Origin: Spinellus fusiger
Lineage: Eukaryota; Mucoromycota; Mucoromycetes; Mucorales; Phycomycetaceae
Reading direction: 5' to 3'
Length of the DNA stretch: 64,000 bases
Assembly (NCBI GenBank): GCA_025094145.1
Contig: JALLLS010000002.1
Coordinates: forward strand, 806,001 to 870,000
Of the stretch, positions 23,346-60,214 are shown in pieces. The notes beneath the pieces are model-generated. The model had not been told where the DNA came from, ran no database searches, and saw nothing but the letters and a program-made list of their open reading frames with translations. The first letter of the stretch is position 1. Every line of letters begins with the position of its first letter. A program made the position numbers and the translations under genes.

Positions 23346-23897
23346 AGAGTAGAAAGAGCAGACATATGATACATGGACAGACAAGGACCAAAAAAAGAAA
23401 AAGACAGTATCTTTGATATCATTGGCTGCAGGATAGACTACAGAACAATTATTTACATGTACAGCGTATCAAAAAGAAGGAGGCTAATAAAAGAGCATAT
23501 TGATGGTAAATAATGTTAAGAATAAAAAGTCAGTGTTCCATTTAAAACATCGAATGGCGTTAATAGTCACATGGCTTTTGTTTCTATTGGCTCAACTATT
23601 TCTTTAGTGCCAAAAAGTTAAAATGATCAGGGAAAATAAATGCAAAAATAGTATATTATGTCCCAATTGGGATGTATAAGGCTCTTTTACACACCAGGAG
23701 ATCTTTAGGATATAAAAAGAAATAGTTGAAATAAAATTGTTTAAGAAATGACATCGATTTGAGGAGCGAAAATAAATTAAGATGTACTCATGTTAGTTTT
23801 TAAATAAAAACTATGTAGATTTACCTGTAGATATCTGAATCCCAGAGAAAACCACCTTCGATGGGGTGATATATAATATGAATACAAATAAGAATAT
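23346..23897. other. AT-rich spacer
   Basis: No recognisable frame. It lies downstream (on the minus strand) of a Fanzor-like tail. Confidence 0.45.
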
Positions 23898-24125
23898 CTA
23901 TTCTTTTCTACAGAATGGAACTGGTCGGTGGAGACCCTTTAAACACTCTTCTGTAATTGTATAGATATTCTTTGATGCATTCACATTTCTGTTCCAAACA
24001 ATTCCACAACCTTGGCAAGCGCGGATATTGTTGAAATTCACTAATACCTCAGTGAGGTTATTTGTAATATAAGTATGGCAGATCTTGAGAACAAAAAGAA
24101 ATCTCACAAGCCATTTGCTTAATCA
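23898..24125 (-). pseudogene. Fanzor/TnpB-like C-terminal tail (zinc ribbon and RuvC-III), decayed
   Basis: The minus strand encodes ICHTYIT, about 20 residues later ACQGCGIVWNRN and VNASKNIYTI, ending HRPVPFCRKE and a stop. This is the order of the last part of TnpB/Fanzor proteins: first Cys pair, second Cys pair, the W-N-R-D strand with the third RuvC Asp, and a trailing R-P..F tail. Here the RuvC-III Asp reads Asn and the first zinc-ribbon pair has only one Cys. No N-terminal or RuvC-I/II part was found upstream. It is a truncated dead relative, of a different clade from the intact gene at 47498. Confidence 0.6.
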
Positions 24126-25140
24126 GAACCACCAAAGTAATCCAGACTACAACAACATTCTAGAAAGAAAAAGAATTCCTTAAAGAACAGTTGCCTAGTT
24201 ACCTGTTGTGATCAAATTGTGTGTTGTGTTCCTGTTCATGTACGGTCTTTGATTTCCCTAGACTATCCTTTGTAATAATACTCTCTTTCGTAGTCCCTGC
24301 TAGAGACCCAATATCTATACATTTATCTCTCTAGTGGTCTTGTTGATAACCCTAGTGCCCTTTATTGCAGAATAAAGGAGATATTTTACAATAAAATCAC
24401 TTTATGGAATTCTATGGCCTTGAAATACAAAACCAAAACTATACACACTGTAGGATAGGGCAGCCACCCTTCCCAGTCTGCTTGGATGTTCTATGAAAAT
24501 CATAGCTATTGCCTGGGAATGGCAGAATAGACAAATTCACAGTCAAAGAAGAAATAGAAAACTAATATAAAAAGTGTAATTGTCTATATCTTTAATAAGA
24601 TAGACTTTAATCCAAACAGCTTCCTAGCGTATAAACAAGATAGGCTTTAAGAACTTGAACAGCTGACTGTTTCTTGTTCTCGACTTGTTTTCTTTGGTTG
24701 GCTAATGTGTTTGAAAAAAACCTTTTCACTGTCTGTCTGTCTTAGCATTGACTATGGACTGTGCGATTAAACACTATAAAGTTGGATAAAAGGAAGAAGC
24801 AAACCTGACATTACAACTCAATCACTGTATCTATTGTTTAACATAATATGCTATCCTTAAGCCCACAGTATAACAATCAAGCACATGTCAATATGAGCAT
24901 AACTGAGCAAGGTAATGTGCCATTATTAACAAAGAGAAACAATAGAAGGAAGTTGTAGACACTACCAAGGACTATTCTAGTGATAAAAAGGTAGGCAGTG
25001 TCTTCATCTGGGCTTGAGCTCATTGTAATCTATCTCCCAAGGATAAACCATTATAATGTTGGGATATAGATTCTATTGCTATGAAGGGAGTGTACTTTGG
25101 CAGTAGCTATAGTACATAATATATCATTAGCTATACTATT
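24126..25140. other. Spacer, no gene recognised
   Basis: Short frames without recognisable domains on either strand. The missing N-terminal part of the Fanzor-like tail would be expected here but was not found. Confidence 0.45.
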
Positions 25141-46238: not shown

Positions 46239-46378
46239 GTGGTGTAGACCTGAAACTTGGACAGTAGGTGGGGAGGTGGGTGATGTTGATGGATTGTGTT
46301 TTTTGATGGATGATTTTCAAATTTGGATAGACTTACAATTTTGGTTTTAAAAAAATCCTCCTGATGAGAAGGAGAGAT

Positions 46379-46451
46379 GCCGCGATAGCTCAGCTGGGAG
46401 AGCGTTAGACTGAAGATCTAAAGGTCGTGTGTTCAATCCACACTCGTGGCA
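46379..46451 (+). tRNA. tRNA-Phe (GAA), no intron
   Basis: The 73-nt sequence folds as a full cloverleaf: acceptor GCCGCGA pairing with TCGTGGC, D arm GCTCAGCTGGGAGAGC, anticodon arm TTAGA CTGAAGA TCTAA with anticodon GAA, a variable loop AGGTC, T arm GTGTG TTCAATC CACAC, and discriminator A. Internal A and B boxes are present. Downstream, a short CCGCTCATATGAGCGG hairpin precedes a T-run near 46483 that can act as the Pol III terminator. A LINE ORF1 begins 141 bp upstream on the opposite strand. Confidence 0.96.
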
Positions 46452-47497
46452 GTTTCGCCCGCTCATATGAGCGGTGTTTAACTTTTTATATAATATTTGT
46501 TGGGAAGTATGGTGATAAAAGAGAAAAGAGAGACTTATTTCTATTGTATGAAGTACTTTTTTTCTTTATAGATGTTGTCAAGCCAGCACAATATATCAGA
46601 TGGATGACCAATCACCTCTTGAGTGAACCCTATTCAAAATAGATAGATAAGCTGTTATGGATAGAGTGATTTGCACAAAAGTCATTGCAACTGTCCAAAT
46701 AATGATAGATACCAAACAGAAAGTAGAGACATTGTGATATGACCAAGAAATGGCAGCTTACTGTAAAGAATGAGTGAGATGAATCAGTCATATAATCCTA
46801 TGAGTTACGTACTTCTTTTTTTTCATATAGGATAGTTAGGTTTGGAATATACATACTTATTCAATGACCAAAATGTTAAGAGAAGCACACTAGAACACTA
46901 CTGCTTCAGATTGATATACAGAAATGACTCCAATCACTTGCATGTATTTGGAAAGCTCTCTTTATCAGTATAGAGTATATACTAGCATTGAACAAGGTTG
47001 TCTGAATTATATACGGCACAACCAAGACACATTGAGAAGAGATATATTGAGTGGTGTACAGGATGCTGTTATCTCAGACCCCATTTATTAAAGAAACGAG
47101 AGGTTAACAGTTTATAAATAAATAAAACAGCTACAGAATCAATGGTATTGAATAAAGCATCTAAGTCGTAGCGTATTTAATACATTTTATAGATCTTTTA
47201 GAGATAATATAAAAGTACAACAGCCTGCATTAGAATGTATATCTTTTGGTGGTGATTTCCTTGAAGTTCTTCTATATTTAGTAATCATTAAAGTATAAAA
47301 GAATAACAAACAAGTTGAATAAAAAAGAGCAGAGTTAATTGTACGAACTAAACCAATACCTTTGGACCTAAGAAGTCATTAACGACACCATCACATCAAT
47401 GGATGATAAATAATAGCTGACACTATTCAGTGTTGCTAATAAAATAACTATTTATTTCCTCTTTCTTATTGTATTTCTATCTATTCTTTCTGAACTA
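46452..47497. other. Spacer between tRNA-Phe and the Fanzor gene
   Basis: About 46503-46580 is closely similar to 51283-51360 (GGTGATAAAAG.GAAAAGAGAGAC and following), the left part of a Tc1/mariner fragment, so a small element piece sits here. The rest is AT-rich with no recognised gene. The left end of any element carrying the Fanzor gene should lie here, but I could not identify terminal repeats. Confidence 0.45.
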
Positions 47498-49796
47498 ATG
47501 ATGTTATGCAGCCAACAAGATGTTAATGAAGTAAAGAAGATACAACATGCTTATAGAATCAATATAGGGTTCTTACATATATTTGATTTTTATAGGAGAC
47601 TATAGCAAGTTCTTCGTGTGCGAATCCTACCAGAGTAATAACAGTTAAGACCTCTTTACATGACACTGGTTGGAGATCGGATTATCTACCTGTTTTGAAA
47701 AATCTGGTCTATAACATCAATACCATTGTTTCTCATACTTATGCATTCTCCAAGTATATATTGATCCATCTACTCGAAAATGAAGATGGATCTGCTTTGA
47801 ATGATTGCATAACTAAGGATTTCTTCCGTGAGGTGTTTTTGTCGCTCATTAATAAGCAAATCAGAGAGGGTAGTGCTTCCGGTAAAACACGTCTCACACC
47901 CAAGGTGCGTCAAATAAGAGAAAAGATCAACCCTCTGAAGAATGACTACTGTCAATATGCGTCCTACACTCCAATCAAAATAACCAATGCTCAACAAATC
48001 TCCATTTATGAAAGCACCAAGATACACACATCCTACATTAATAATATTGTGTCTCAATTTGGGAATCGTCTTAGAATGTTCTTCAACATCATCCTGCGAC
48101 AAAAAGAAAGAATTGCCACATTGAACTATGCCATGAAAGCCAAAAACTATTCTGAGGAGGCTATTGCAAATATTATTAGATTAAATGTGTTGGATGTGTG
48201 TACGCAAATCAAACGAGATATTTCGACAAAAACTGTTCCCAATGCACCCGTAGATTTCTTGAACAAAAAGGCCATTAGCCAAGTACAAGAACTGCTATCC
48301 TGCTATCCTCCCAGTTATAGATTTGCTAAAAACTCTATCTATTATGATGTTAAAGCCAATCCAACCAAGCACATGTACGTATTTGCTAAGCTGGCCCAAC
48401 TATGTGAAGAGAATAGAAACAAATCCTTTAGTTGCTTCCCACTTCGTAAAAGCTTCATTCCCTCTCACATTACGATAGATACTAAGATACTCAACCACCC
48501 TATCTTGAAAAACAAAAGCTACACGGGCGAAAAGTTTGATCTTTGGGGTCAAGTCGTCAATCTAAAATCAAAGGTGTTCAAAAGTCAAGGTATAGATAGG
48601 TCAATGAGATTCCAAGGTACAATAGAAACCGATGGTGTGGCAGTGTCGGTGATCAAGCAAAACTTTATGTCGAGAGGTTCCTCAGGTGGTAGCCGCAAAG
48701 CACCTATTGATGAGGATCACATTGAGTCTATTGAAGAGTTATCTCAAGCTGCATTAGTAGAGACAAAAGACAGATGTGTACTCATCGATCCGGGTCGTCG
48801 AGACCTATTATTCTGTATGCAAGAAAACAGTACACCCGATAATAAATCCATCTACAGGTATACAAGTAATCAACGAGCCAAAGAAACAAAGTCAACCCAT
48901 TTCAAGAAGCTTCGACAGAACCTCAAGCCTCCATCCATCCAAAGACTAGAAGACAAAATTAGTCAAGTTCCTGCTTCAACAGTAAAACTCAAAGAGTTCA
49001 TCAAATATATACAAACAAAAGCAAGTGTGTCGGAGGACTTGATATTGTATTACGGCAATGAAACAATGAAAGATGATAATGGGCAAACAAAAGACAGTGG
49101 TATAAAAGAAAAAGGCCCCTCAAGTGCCAATTCTCTTATTATGAAACAATCGCTACTACCATTTCGAAAGATGAAGCTATCGAGTCATATCAATAGATTG
49201 CAGTCTGATAAACGACTAGCCCGAGACTTGAGAGCCAAGTTTAGAGAAGATCCGGTGTTGATCTTGGGCGACTGGTCAAGCACAAATATGAAGTTCCATG
49301 AACCAATAAAGGGGAAGGGCATGCGGAGGATGTTGAAGAAAGAAGGATTCAAACTCTATCTTATCAATGAATTCAAAACATCGAGCCTGTGTCCTGAGTG
49401 CAAGTACTCACCTTTGGAAACATTTAAACATGTCAAGAACCCCAGCCCTATCAACGAACAAAAATGCCCAAAGTTAAATGTCATGGTCTTCTCAGGTCAT
49501 TTTCTTAATTCTATATCAAAAAAGAAACTCATATTTCTCTCTCTTCAAATAGGTGTTCAAACCAAAATTGTATGGACAAGACATTGAGGCTTTGGAATCG
49601 TGATCTAGCTGCTACATTGAACTTTAGACATATTCTAATGTCTCAAAGGGAAAATGGTACTTACCAGGGCGCTTTTGTAGATATAACAAAAGAAAGCATG
49701 ACTCCAAGGATACAACTAGAACCAATAAAAGGTCCAAGCCTTCTGGTTTATCCTTCTCCTCCCCAGTTATCGCTGGAGCCTCGGTTGACTAACTGA
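47498..49796 (+). CDS. Fanzor (eukaryotic TnpB-like RNA-guided nuclease), apparently intact, 3 exons
   Basis: Fanzor proteins are eukaryotic relatives of TnpB; characterised members cut DNA guided by an RNA encoded near the gene. Exons 47498-47530, 47596-49472 and 49553-49796 (introns of 65 and 80 nt) give 717 aa without a stop. RuvC-I is VLIDPGRRDLLFC (Asp409), preceded by the Fanzor-typical ETDGVAVS strand. At the classical RuvC-II position the sequence reads LGDWSS with no Glu; Glu603 in LINEFKTSS, just before the zinc ribbon, is in the place where Fanzors use an alternative Glu. The zinc ribbon has CPEC (610, 613) with KCPKCSNQNC (635-643), and RuvC-III is LWNRDLAAT (Asp654). The N-terminal half is basic and helical. 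The intron junctions restore the ribbon, which supports both the splicing and past selection. Transposition partners and terminal repeats were not found. Confidence 0.88.
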
Positions 49797-50049
49797 CGGA
49801 AACCCATGATACAGGTAAACTACCTAAAAAGTGATAATGAAGTGTATCTTATTCGATTTTGTCATGCAAATAGATATTATAATATCTAGTATAATATAAT
49901 TGACATTGACATTGACATTGAACGTGTTATATTTCCCTAAAACATCACTAGAAAATGGATCTCACCAATACACCCTACCTCCATAATACTTGGTGGATCT
50001 CATATGTCAGTAATATACAGTTCTATATAATAAATGATTAGGCGGCAAA
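49797..50049 (+). other. Fanzor 3' flank with palindrome and hairpin; candidate guide-RNA region
   Basis: It contains a perfect 16-bp palindrome AGATATTATAATATCT at about 49872-49887, a (TTGACA)n run at about 49899-49921, and a hairpin at 49958-49999 with arms GATC-T-CACCAA and TTGGTGGATC and a 21-nt loop. In TnpB and several Fanzor loci the guide RNA overlaps the end of the gene and the right end of the element, so a structured RNA here is plausible. The sequence itself shows no more than the folds. Confidence 0.3.
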
Positions 50050-50895
50050 CCAATTTTTATTTTTGAAGAATAAAAAATAAAATAAAGGTCCTTTTCTTTT
50101 CTTATATATAACTTATTTTTAAAAAAAATGACTTCAAGCAATGAAAATGAGCCAAATATTAGCCAAGAACATGAAGATGGTCATATCAAAAGAAGAAAGT
50201 ATGATATTCTTATCTAAGGTCAAATTATAGGACAACGGAAAAGACGTGCTACTTATTAAGAGATTGTTGACAATCTTGATATCCTAAAGAGCACAGTGGG
50301 CAAGACTCTTCTACTGTATAAAAACAAAGGCATAATTCAACTTAAAATGCATACAGGAAGACCTGAAAAGGCGTCATCTACTTCAAAACTGGCCATCGTC
50401 TTGTCTATTCGCAGAAACCCTATGCAAACAATTGCATATCATTTGAAAAATATGAATGATGCAGGCGTGGATATTTGCCGTAGTACATTTCTAAAATACA
50501 TGAATGAACTCGGGGGGTATTTTTCATGCTCACCATCAAGAAAAACTTGTATGACACTTACTCACAAGCATAACCAATGTAAAACAGCTTGAACAATGCT
50601 TGTGTAGTGAATAGGAGATTCCAAATGAATTTATGGAAAATTTAGTGGATAGCATGCCAAAGAGGTGCTCCACTGTGATAAAGAATAAAGGATTTTCTAC
50701 AAAGTACTAAGTGATATCTTTATAATAAAAATGTAGACAATTATCTAAAAAACAACTATTCCAAATTTTGTGTTATTCCATGAACCTTTTATTATGAATA
50801 TTTTTGACTGATAGATATGCCTTTATTTTTCAAAATAAAATAATTTCAAAATAAAATAGTTGATTTTTTGACTAGTAACTTATTGCTTGGGAGTG
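50050..50895 (+). mobile_element. Internally deleted copy of the DD36E Tc1/mariner element
   Basis: The left part matches the leader and N-terminal transposase of the 37756-39131 element (MTSSNENEP..., RPEKASSTSKLAIVLSIRR, DAGVDICRSTFLKYMNELG), with stops. After MTLTHKH the sequence jumps to the C-terminus (VKQLEQCL, IPNEFMENLVDSMPKRC), so the whole catalytic core is deleted. The right terminal repeat is kept in decayed form (GTAACTTATTGCTTGGGAGTG), while the left outer repeat is lost. It lies just downstream of the Fanzor gene. Confidence 0.75.
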
Positions 50896-51280
50896 CATTT
50901 CTCTTAATGTATTATTTGATCTTTAACTTTCTACTATAAATAATGTATCTTTTTTATAATAAAAAGAAATAACCACAATATACAAAGGACGAGTTGAAAT
51001 TCCTCATAGTTTTCAAGATGAATTCACAAAACTGAACAACTGAATGGTATAAGGTGTAGAAATAGCATTTTGGTATTCAAAATACTTACAAGACCGAATG
51101 ATGATGATTTAATAATATTGTCTCCGAATGTAATTCCGTACATTTCAATTCTATGATGTAGGAATAGTTATCAGGGAGTAGAAATAACAGTTCTCTAATA
51201 TTCTTAATAATAAATCATAACCTGGACACACATGAATGAGAAAACTCGGAATCAAACAATCATATTTACTATATTTGGAA
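50896..51280. other. AT-rich spacer
   Basis: No gene or element was recognised apart from decayed transposon flanks. Confidence 0.4.
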
Positions 51281-57691: not shown

Positions 57692-59321
57692 CAGTCACAC
57701 CCAATTGAATTTAATAATTGCCTAAATTTTAATAAAATAATACCTTTATCTTTGCATAAAACTCTTATTCTTTCCAAATAGTGTTAAACCTACTGTCGTC
57801 TTTGGGTTTAACCAAAGGAAATCCGGACAGTTCAAAGAGTAAACAAAGTCTCATCTTTATTGATGGGTATTTCTCTCTTCTTTTATACTTTTCTAATTGA
57901 TATTGTCTACTAATAAAAGCTATGGAAAGACCCCTGTTACTACAGTATCATCCCTGAGATATACGCCTTGCTACTAACTCATCTTCTACCATGTGGTCCC
58001 GTTTAGGCAATTTGTGTTTCTGTTGACTTGGATGATCGATAGTTCTGTTTATGGAAATGTGATTATCCGACACTACACACTATGTAAAATAGATATTCAA
58101 AAATTCACAGTTGTGAAGAATAGGATAGGGCAAAAGATAGAAGATTGTGGAGCATTTATTACATGTTGAAGGCTGGATTAAAATTGACTGTCACTACAAA
58201 CGTAGTTGAGATGAAAAAGCCCACAGATCAAAATAGTATCAGAAGCATCAAAGAACGTGGGTTATCATTGCGTTTAAAGAGTCACGGAAAACATAAAAAA
58301 AAACCAGTGAGAGGGACCTCAGACACCTGGAAAAGGTCATTAGAGAGGACCCATTTGCCTCATATAATCAGCTGAAATTGGAAATGTTGAAGATTCAGGT
58401 TGATGTATGTAGAAACACCATGATCATTTACTGCAATCAGTTAGGGTTCGGATCTTTTTATGTATATCACAAGTCAACCTTAACTGAAAAATACAAAGAG
58501 AAACAGCTTTGTTGGGCTAAGGAACATGTCAATTGGACGAGCGACCAGTGGAGAGGTGTTATTTAGTCTGATGAGTCCAGGTACACCGTAAAAGGGAACA
58601 ATAGTGGTGCGTGTGTCATCATAAAAGTTAGAGAAAGGTATGATCCTAATCCTATTGTTCCAACAATAAAGTTTGGTGGCGGTGGGGTCATGCTTTGGAG
58701 CTGTTTTTGGGCGGGCGGATTTGGCCCATGAGTCTTTGTTGATAGCACTGTAAACCAAGACGAATATATCAAAATTATGGCTGGTGAGTTCTATCCTTTG
58801 TTCATGGAATTGAATTAGAAAGAGGATAGGGAGTTTCTGTTACAAGAAGATGGTTCTAGTTGTCATACTGGGGCCTATGCTAGATAGTGGAAAGAGACAC
58901 ATCAGACTAGGCATTTTGATAACTGGCTCACACAAATCCCTGACTTGAGCCCAATTGAACACATCTGGTGGGCTATAGAAAGACTAATTGAGGAAAGAAG
59001 GGTATCTATTACCAATGTTGAATGTTTGAAGGCTCTACTTGCAGAGGAGTGGGAGTGAGTTGGTGTTGAACTTGCACAACAATAAATTCAAAGTATGACA
59101 GATAGATGCCAGGCTGTCATTGATACCAAAAGAGGCCATACAAAATATTAATTATATTATTATTATTTTATTTTCTATAATTAAATATGTTGAACTTTGT
59201 TGTGTGGAAGTTTGAAGCTTCTATATCAAATGTGGAGTGTTTTATTTAATGTTGAACATAGTCTATCTATTTTGTCCTGATATTTATTCTCAAAAGTATT
59301 CAATTCAGTTGAGTGTAACTG
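57692..59321 (+). mobile_element. Tc1/mariner element (DD35E type), broken, carrying a nested solo LTR
   Basis: Terminal inverted repeats CAGTCACACCCAATTGAATT and the inverse (AATTCAGTTGAGTGTAACTG) bound the element; TA precedes it and CA (mutated TA) follows. Without the inserted LTR it is about 1.35 kb. The transposase (plus, from about 58140) shows IQVDVCRNTMIIYCNQLGF, WTSDQWRGVI, SDESRYTVKG, GGGGVMLWSCFW, QEDGSSCHTG, PDLSPIEHIWW and DRCQAVIDTKRG. All three acidic positions are kept, with 35 residues between the second Asp and Glu, but at least six stops and one frameshift break it. Confidence 0.82.
57794..58072. mobile_element. Solo LTR of the TRIM family nested in the Tc1 element, duplication CTAC
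   Basis: This 279-bp unit starts TGTCGTCTTTGGG and ends GATTATCCGACA, with CTAC at 57790-57793 and 58073-58076. It is similar to the LTRs at 54730 and 55181. It lies between the left terminal repeat and the transposase gene. Confidence 0.75.
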
Positions 59322-60214
59322 CATTTCTTAGTGACAAGTGTTTCTTAATAAGTAAATAATAGAAATGACAAGATTAAGTCTAAGAAATATTTATAATGGG
59401 TTGATCTTTTATACTGTGTGCAAATAGAATATTAGTTTGTTAGAGTGTACACATCTTATTTAAAGTGTACTGGTAAAGAAAGAAGAAGAAAGGTCTGTAA
59501 GTCTCCAATCCAACTGTAAAGCAGAAATAAGTCGATGTTTTAATTTCAAGCATATTTCTCACGGTGAAGAGTGTGCATCCGTCCATCTCAGTGATACATC
59601 TTTGTGAGCAGTGAATGCACTACAGTCCACAGTAGGTTAAAACGGAACCCTGTACACCAATATAGAAATAGGCCTGTTTTAGACTGTTTGTTCTCTCTCA
59701 TCAACCCTATTTTGGTATCACATCCTAACACTACAGGATAAGCAGCAGTAACATTGTCATTGGCTGTAAAATATATTTATTTATTCTTTTTGTTCTGTCT
59801 ATGATGGGTGTTTAGTCTGTGTGCCTTTGTGTACAAGTGAGTTGCCTTGTCTTTCTAATGATTTATCCATAGTATGTCTACACCTAGTTATTAGCTAGTT
59901 ATTAGCTAGTTAGTACTTAGCCAGCACCTAGCCAGCACCTAGCCAGCACACCTACTGAAGAATCAATAAGCAAATTAACCCAGAAATGGACTAGGATCTT
60001 TATTAAAAAATATCACTTGTAGATCTCTTCCCATAAAAGTATGTTCATTTTGTCATTGTTATTTACTGTGCCATGTCGTGTCTCTGCTCTTCATAAAGCG
60101 GACCACTAGGGCTAGAGTGTACAAGACAAACGCAATCCAGCTGCACGTTTTTACGTCTGTACAAACATAGCGTGCAAGATAAAGTCTTATTTTTCTTTCT
60201 TTTCTTTTCTATTA
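59322..60214. other. Spacer downstream of the GSK-3 gene
   Basis: No gene recognised. A small tandem repeat (TTAGCTAGTTA, then AGCCAGCACCT three times) lies at about 59885-59957. Confidence 0.45.
59885..59957 (+). repeat. Short tandem repeat (TAGTTATTAGC and CCAGCACCTAG units)
   Basis: Two adjacent short arrays of 11-bp units share the core CTAG. They look like simple slippage repeats. Confidence 0.8.

What the first reader, a model, noticed from the sequence alone, without database searches (positions are those of the whole stretch)
47498..49796. Apparently intact Fanzor nuclease gene with two introns
Splicing gives a 717-aa frame with all expected catalytic and zinc residues (Asp409, Glu603, Asp654, four or more Cys). 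The classical RuvC-II Glu position reads GDWS, and the Glu in NEFKTS takes its place, a rearranged active site reported for Fanzors. Both intron removals are needed to restore conserved parts, so the gene was under selection recently. An intact eukaryotic RNA-guided nuclease is the strongest candidate for an active, little-described system here.
Basis: partly seen in the sequence, partly recalled or inferred. Interest (0 to 1): 0.85.

Follow-up and report, generated by a model that had tools for sequence, protein, structure and literature searches.

The report
Decayed copy of fungal Fanzor transposon
The gene is a real relative of the fungal RNA-guided DNA cutter Fanzor, but comparison with its sister copies shows that it is a broken transposon copy that only looks intact because one intron was drawn in the wrong place.

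Summary
The 717-aa spliced frame can be read exactly as described. It is a Fanzor1 of the clade of Parasitella PpFz1 (structure 9cf0, E 2.7e-165). Asp409, Glu603 and Asp654 align with the metal-binding Asp383, Glu541 and Asp606 of SpuFz1, so the rearranged-glutamate reading is right.

"Intact" is not borne out. Aligned with 13 other near-complete copies from the same genome, this copy is one base short near 49444 and again near 49663; none of the 13 shares either loss. In the family, intron 2 runs 49496-49552. The stretch removed by the proposed donor at 49473 codes for VKCHGLLR, part of a motif seen in 25 of 120 relatives. The proposed intron 2 therefore masks a frameshift. With the family splice the protein ends before its second zinc pair and third catalytic Asp. 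All 14 aligned copies carry a disabling lesion.

Private changes show no codon-position bias (112/112/106): selection acted on the source element, not on this copy.

The element family has defined ends, often a decayed Tc1/mariner-type region before the Fanzor gene (absent here), and short derivatives without the gene. An ordinary, decayed member of a known kind.

The parts
46485..49891 (+). Fanzor element copy; left end truncated, transposase region absent, right end complete
   Evidence: similarity to the left-end module of L044 begins at 46485; right end shared by the 33 copies read
46485..46605 (+). remnant of the left-end module; about the first 85 nt of the module as seen in L044 are missing
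   Evidence: 46485 matches L044 3362, while the module starts at L044 3277
46617..47497 (+). upstream part of the Fanzor module, shared by copies
47498..47530 (+). exon 1 (ATG here and in 4 of 13 other copies; 9 of 13 have AAG, with an ATG three bases on in 8 of these 9, not in L021)
47531..47595 (+). intron 1, GTAAAG..ATAG, supported
   Evidence: donor kept in 14 of 14 copies; two acceptor forms, both in frame (by eye)
47596..49495 (+). exon 2 in the family model; holds Asp409, Glu603 and the first zinc pair CPEC
49444..49445 (+). one base fewer than in 13 of 13 other aligned copies: frameshift
   Evidence: PpFz1 row
49496..49552 (+). intron 2 in the family model, GTCATT..ATAG, 57 nt
49553..49796 (+). 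exon 3: second zinc pair CSNQNC and RuvC III Asp (WNRD); out of frame in this copy with the family splice; one more base missing near 49663
49797..49891 (+). right end; putative guide-RNA scaffold
   Evidence: 92.1% mean pairwise identity over 14 copies, between coding (94.0%) and introns (90.9%, 83.8%) but below the upstream noncoding part (93.3%), so not specially conserved; kept in the short derivatives L048, L053, L054
49872..49887 (+). terminal hairpin, 6 pairs, one of them covarying (U-A 12, U-G 8, C-G 8, other 3, of 31 distinct rows)
49892..49911 (+). host flank; would be the guide if the right end makes an omega-RNA
   Evidence: inference from the Fanzor mechanism (PMC10432273, passages)

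Best explanation
This is a decayed, truncated copy of a multi-copy DNA transposon of a fungus whose Fanzor relatives are mostly mucoralean. Fuller elements run: left end, a decayed Tc1/mariner-type transposase region, a Fanzor1 gene with two introns, right end with a terminal hairpin. In working copies (inferred) the Fanzor1 protein would bind an RNA made from the right end, whose 3' tail copies the flanking host DNA, and would cut matching DNA next to an AT-N motif, as measured for PpFz1; that would favour keeping or copying the element at its site. The window copy lacks the transposase region, and its nuclease frame is broken ahead of the second zinc pair and the third catalytic Asp, so it most likely makes no active nuclease. 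Shown: membership, multiple copies, lesions, corrected intron 2, neutral private changes. Inferred: omega-RNA, guide, cutting, role in mobility, and that the transposase region once served this element.
For: Homology to PpFz1 and SpuFz1 with aligned catalytic residues. 64 matching pieces from 40 scored of 619 first-look DNA candidates. One base short at 49444 and at 49663 against 13 of 13 other aligned copies. C-x-GLL-x-C motif in 25 of 120 relatives. At least one frameshift, stop ahead of the catalytic Asp or lost splice donor in 14 of 14 aligned copies. Private substitutions 112/112/106 by codon position against 55/58/89 for shared ones. Left end, mariner-like region, Fanzor upstream region in this order in 7 of the 12 loci, about 5 independent ones after merging those with the same flank.
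Against: No RNA data. The window copy is one of two matches that cover the query 1-592 without a stop, and it has only 13 private substitutions over 664 codons, so it is not long dead. The family donor GTCATT is not a textbook 5' splice site either (from memory), so use of the donor at 49473 cannot be excluded. Mean pairwise dN/dS is 0.41 (with the exon 2 end one base too far, which puts exon 3 out of frame), and shared alleles are enriched at third positions, so the source element was under selection. The transposase region of the element itself is too decayed to show a domain above Pfam's cut-off.
Confidence: 0.85

Rival explanations
1. One reading: the cryptic donor at 49473 is used, the 717-aa protein is made and is an active nuclease with a shortened zinc-ribbon loop.
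For: The frame is open and keeps D409, E603, D654 and the CPEC and CSNQNC pairs.
Against: It deletes a motif seen in 25 of 120 relatives that is coding in the sister copies; it is needed only because of a one-base loss private to this copy; the tail after 49663 is out of the family frame.
Confidence: 0.05
2. The two missing bases are assembly errors and the gene is intact with the family intron 2.
For: Both losses are single bases, and single-base indels are common among the copies.
Against: Several one-base indels are shared between copies at different loci (codon 330 in L016 and L021, 485 in L020 and L021, 660 in L012, L014, L017 and L019), so many are real; the sequence round 49663 also differs by substitutions; open exon-length frames of a host kinase, recognised by eye as GSK3-like, lie in the same window.
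Confidence: 0.07
3. A single Fanzor gene domesticated by the host and kept for a host function.
For: One of two matches that cover the query 1-592 without a stop.
Against: It sits inside a repeated element with the family's right end and shows no sign of selection on its private changes.
Confidence: 0.02

Closest known systems
PpFz1, Fanzor1 of Parasitella parasitica (PDB 9cf0-9cf3; PMC11423790, sections 4 and 5 and passages seen)
   Same: Best solved relative (554.6 bits, aligned over 22-504 and 520-671); DPGRR, EFxTSS, CHGLLRC (family frame) and WNRD motifs; its TAM 5'-ATN-3' agrees with ATA or ATT next to the left end of 11 of 13 distinct copies, or 11 of 14 with the divergent L011.
   Different: No FRI insertion: 15 residues against 93 between aligned blocks. 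The window copy is frame-broken.
SpuFz1 and the Spu-1 / ghost elements of Spizellomyces punctatus (PMC10432273, passages seen)
   Same: Catalytic Asp383/Glu541/Asp606 align with 409/603/654; elements that keep the ends but lack the gene; a conserved motif outside the left end.
   Different: There, ends are 30-nt inverted repeats, 19 loci have full-length genes and no transposase was found inside; here the two ends differ, a decayed Tc1/mariner-type region lies inside several elements, and no intact gene was found among the copies scored.
Fanzor1 elements of Mucorales and Fanzor1 captured by Mariner (Bao and Jurka 2013, PMC3627910, passages seen)
   Same: Fanzor1 in repeated fungal DNA transposons; Mariner association known; MCi-2 has variable 5' regions, a constant 3' part and a target-duplication pattern ATAATTNNNN(N), reminiscent of ATAATTACTG here.
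   Different: The passages seen do not describe this left end, transposase region, Fanzor order for a mucoralean element; no consistent target duplication was seen here.

Membership tests
Fanzor1 | Sequence homology to characterised Fanzor1 | tested here: met
   E 2.7e-165 PpFz1, 4.4e-46 SpuFz1, 1.4e-10 GtFz1
Fanzor1 | RuvC triad with rearranged Glu (E-x6-CxxC, PMC10711439) | tested here: met
   D409, E603 then FKTSSL then CPEC; they align with SpuFz1 D383 and E541, and D654 with D606 (alignment; numbering offset 394 worked out by hand). The D-to-E spacing, 194, is longer than the 120-160 of that paper's pattern.
Fanzor1 | C4 zinc ribbon followed by RD, in frame in this copy | tested here: not met
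   Second pair CSNQNC and WNRD are out of frame with the family splice; in frame only with the proposed cryptic donor
Fanzor1 | Lies in a transposon with defined ends | tested here: met
   Right end in all 33 loci that the end probe hit; left end, truncated in the window
Fanzor1 | omega-RNA from the 3' end | tested here: inconclusive
   6-bp hairpin in 94.6% of cells; of 500 shuffles 25 reach the paired percentage, 36 the cells with double change, 12 the covariation score, 217 the number of covarying pairs, 500 the number of pair types
Fanzor1 | RNA-guided cleavage of double-stranded DNA | not testable with these tools
   needs an assay
PpFz1-type Fanzor1 with FRI domain | about 100-aa insertion in RuvC binding cyclophilin | tested here: not met
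   15 residues between aligned blocks against 93 in PpFz1
Tc1/mariner composite | Tc1-type HTH and DDE transposase in the element | tested here: inconclusive
   The region in six loci with the family's left end is 72.6-75.6% identical over more than 1.2 kb to a solo Tc1/mariner-type element but decayed: of three pieces of it scanned, one gives PF01498 at E 0.027, below the cut-off, two give nothing. PF01498 3.9e-09 and PF13358 1.2e-09 were found in L043, whose copy is 87% like the solo element, lacks the family's left end and may be a separate insertion. Absent from the window copy.
Crypton (tyrosine recombinase) element | tyrosine recombinase | tested here: not met
   one PF00589 match below the cut-off in the whole genome (C135:222236-222754); its surroundings were not examined

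The most novel reading that the evidence does not exclude
The many right ends of this family act as a scattered bank of guide RNAs that a Fanzor made elsewhere uses in trans, each end carrying its own flanking sequence as guide. There are 364 first-look right-end candidates, 40 scored; 22 of these 40 coincide with none of the Fanzor matches, which itself scored 40 of 619.
Probability: 0.08. Interest if true: 0.55.

Novelty: new member of a known kind. Interest (0 to 1): 0.24.

Why it matters
It shows how a spliced gene model without transcripts can make a dead mobile gene look intact, and that sister copies in the same genome expose this. The family itself is a usable test case for how Fanzor genes, transposase regions and gene-less derivatives with the same ends amplify and decay together in one fungal genome.

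Tried and rejected
Target-site duplication: among copies for which I had both ends, only L034/L047 shows a possible 6-bp repeat (AGTATA), by eye; none is claimed. Tyrosine-recombinase (Crypton) mobility, suggested by AGTA-N6-ACT at the right junction, was dropped because the genome shows one sub-threshold recombinase match. Targeting of tRNA genes was dropped: of the 44 loci then held, only L009 (the window itself) and L011 had a tRNA gene. Helitron ends (CTAG after a hairpin) were considered from memory; the left end does not begin with TC, and no Helitron search was run. The zinc-ribbon candidates were first taken for more copies of this gene; the eight loci fetched do not match the window protein at 1e-3 and belong to another repeat family. 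A plasmid search found nothing. In one search I set the end of exon 2 one base too far; its stop counts are superseded. No structure was predicted: the alignment to solved structures speaks to the clustering question, and a spliced protein would not count as the window's own. On rechecking the claim that the element carries a recognisable transposase was weakened, and confidence in the best explanation lowered from 0.86 to 0.85.

Full report
Observation. Removing 47531-47595 and 49473-49552 from 47498-49796 gives a 717-aa frame with the residues named. The protein matches PpFz1 of Parasitella parasitica (9cf0, 554.6 bits) and SpuFz1 (8gkh, 160.7 bits). 137 database proteins reach E <= 1e-3 among 7993 scored; of the 120 listed, those with names are mostly from Mucoromycota (Pilaira, Rhizopus, Parasitella, Gilbertella, Mucor and others), with some Coemansia and relatives. 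The best is 50% identical over 85% of the query, so no near-identical annotated protein was found there. The genome is 38.1 Mb in 197 contigs; the organism was not identified.

Active site. In the alignment, with an offset of 394 worked out by hand for the fusion tag, D409, E603 and D654 fall on D383, E541 and D606 of SpuFz1, which coordinate the metals in its structure (PMC10432273, passage). SpuFz1 has the same GDWS. E603 sits six residues before CPEC, the rearranged glutamate position of PMC10711439 (passage), though the D-to-E spacing is longer than in that pattern.

Copies. The whole-genome DNA search scored 40 of 619 first-look candidates and gave 64 matching pieces. Fourteen near-complete copies (window, L010-L022) were aligned; the other loci fetched, L023-L038, lack parts of the gene and were left out. 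The window copy is one base short near 49444 and one near 49663; no other of the 13 shares either. For the first, the motif search found the longer form in 14 loci (L010-L018, L020-L022, L029, L030) and the shorter one only in the window's own sequence (L009, L057); L019 did not fit the search pattern but has the longer form in the alignment. With the longer form, exon 2 reads KNPRPYQRTKMPKVKCHGLLR and meets exon 3, CSNQNC; PpFz1 has NPRPHNQEKQPKVLCHGLLRCKNMSC (the same stretch as in P0004). 25 of 120 relatives show a C-x-GLL-x-C motif (the other 95 were not examined one by one). Hence intron 2 is 49496-49552. The proposed donor at 49473 removes conserved coding sequence and restores the frame only because a base is missing upstream.

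State of the family. With the corrected model every one of the 14 copies has a frameshift, a stop ahead of the catalytic Asp, or a lost splice donor. The least damaged other copy is L015, with no frameshift but a changed intron 2 donor and a late stop. In the protein search (74 of 587 candidates scored, 77 matches) only the window copy and the L015 place on contig C2 cover the query 1-592 without stops. Intact members may exist among unscored candidates.

Selection. In the first 664 codons, minor alleles carried by two or more copies fall 55/58/89 on codon positions 1/2/3 (85 synonymous, 117 not). Singletons fall 112/112/106 (92 synonymous, 238 not; 21% synonymous expected for equal random changes). 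The window copy has 13 singletons, 6/3/4, of which 3 are synonymous. The source element was selected; inserted copies decay freely. Mean pairwise dN/dS was 0.41 (computed with the exon 2 end one base off, which affects exon 3).

The element. The right-end probe hit 33 of the loci L001-L056 and reached the end in all; 26 of the 33 end in TCTAGTA, the other 7 differ slightly (counted). The left end reads ATTACTGAAAAATCAC... In seven of the 12 loci fetched with the left end (L045, L046, L047, L049, L050, L052, L056) left end, mariner-like region and Fanzor upstream region follow in the same order; four (L048, L051, L053, L054) lack the mariner-like region; in L055 only the left end and part of that region were seen. 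L046/L047 and L049/L050 share their left flanks, so the seven are about five independent loci. The region is 72.6-75.6% identical to the solo Tc1/mariner-type element in these seven but decayed: no open piece over 100 aa in the five copies looked at (L044, L046, L049, L052, L056), and only one of three pieces scanned gives a weak Tc1 HTH match (E 0.027, below cut-off). Clear HTH and DDE_3 domains were found in L043, whose mariner copy is 87% like the solo element and which lacks the family's left end, so it may be a separate insertion. Whether the region ever served this element is open. The window copy has no such region and a truncated left end, similarity beginning at 46485. L048, L053 and L054 hold both ends but no Fanzor exon 2, within about 0.9-1.1 kb, like the ghost elements of S. 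punctatus (PMC10432273, passages). The right-end search gave 364 first-look candidates, 40 scored; 18 of the 40 coincide by position with places and 22 do not, but itself scored only 40 of 619.

Guide RNA and TAM. The last 92 nt compared (49800-49891) have 92.1% mean pairwise identity over 14 copies, against 94.0% for exon 2, 93.3% for the upstream noncoding part, 90.9% for intron 1 and 83.8% for intron 2, so they are not specially conserved. A terminal 6-bp hairpin forms in 94.6% of cells; one pair covaries. The covariation score is reached by 12 of 500 shuffles, the paired percentage by 25, the cells with double change by 36, but the number of covarying pairs by 217. This is suggestive only. 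The three bases outside the left end are ATA or ATT in 11 of 13 distinct copies (exceptions L054 and L021), or 11 of 14 if the divergent L011 is counted; copies with shared flanks were counted once and the truncated window copy was left out. This agrees with the ATN TAM of PpFz1 (PMC11423790), but the bases could partly belong to the element. On the right, ACT begins 6-8 bases into the flank in 19 of 33 copies, against a mean of 1.6 and a maximum of 6 in 267 control positions further out: an insertion preference of unknown cause.

Literature. Seen: sections 4 and 5 and passages of PMC11423790; passages of PMC10432273, PMC10711439 and PMC3627910. A full-text search for Fanzor with Mucorales found one paper. 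No claim of absence from print is made beyond these searches.

Verdict. A real Fanzor1, correctly recognised, but a decayed copy with a mis-drawn second intron; low interest as a candidate active system.

Noticed in passing
window 23685-24943 (-) and loci L001-L008: A second repeat family carries a TnpB-like zinc ribbon (CHTC..CQSCGIVWNRDVNASKNI, PF07282 2.2e-09). The eight best of 150 scored zinc-ribbon matches (457 candidates) belong to it; the other 142 were not checked. None of the eight matches the window Fanzor at 1e-3.
   Followed up: partly
window 57694-59329: Solo Tc1/mariner-type element with broken transposase and, by eye, similar terminal repeats at both ends; 39 other places at 86-90% identity among 40 scored of 826 candidates.
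   Followed up: partly
window 46378-46452: tRNA-Phe (GAA) gene ending about 32 nt before the Fanzor element copy.
   Followed up: partly
right flanks of the 33 loci: ACT begins 6-8 bases outside the right end in 19 of 33 copies (background mean 1.6): an unexplained insertion-site preference, AGTA-N6-ACT.
   Followed up: partly
window 50010-50900: Another repeat, 39 other places at 80-94% among 40 scored of 395 candidates, directly downstream of the Fanzor copy.
   Followed up: no
left end of the element (L044 3277 on) and window 49824-49835: ATCACTTTTTA near the left end recurs inverted near the right end (CTAAAAAGTGAT): possible transposase binding sites; seen by eye only.
   Followed up: no
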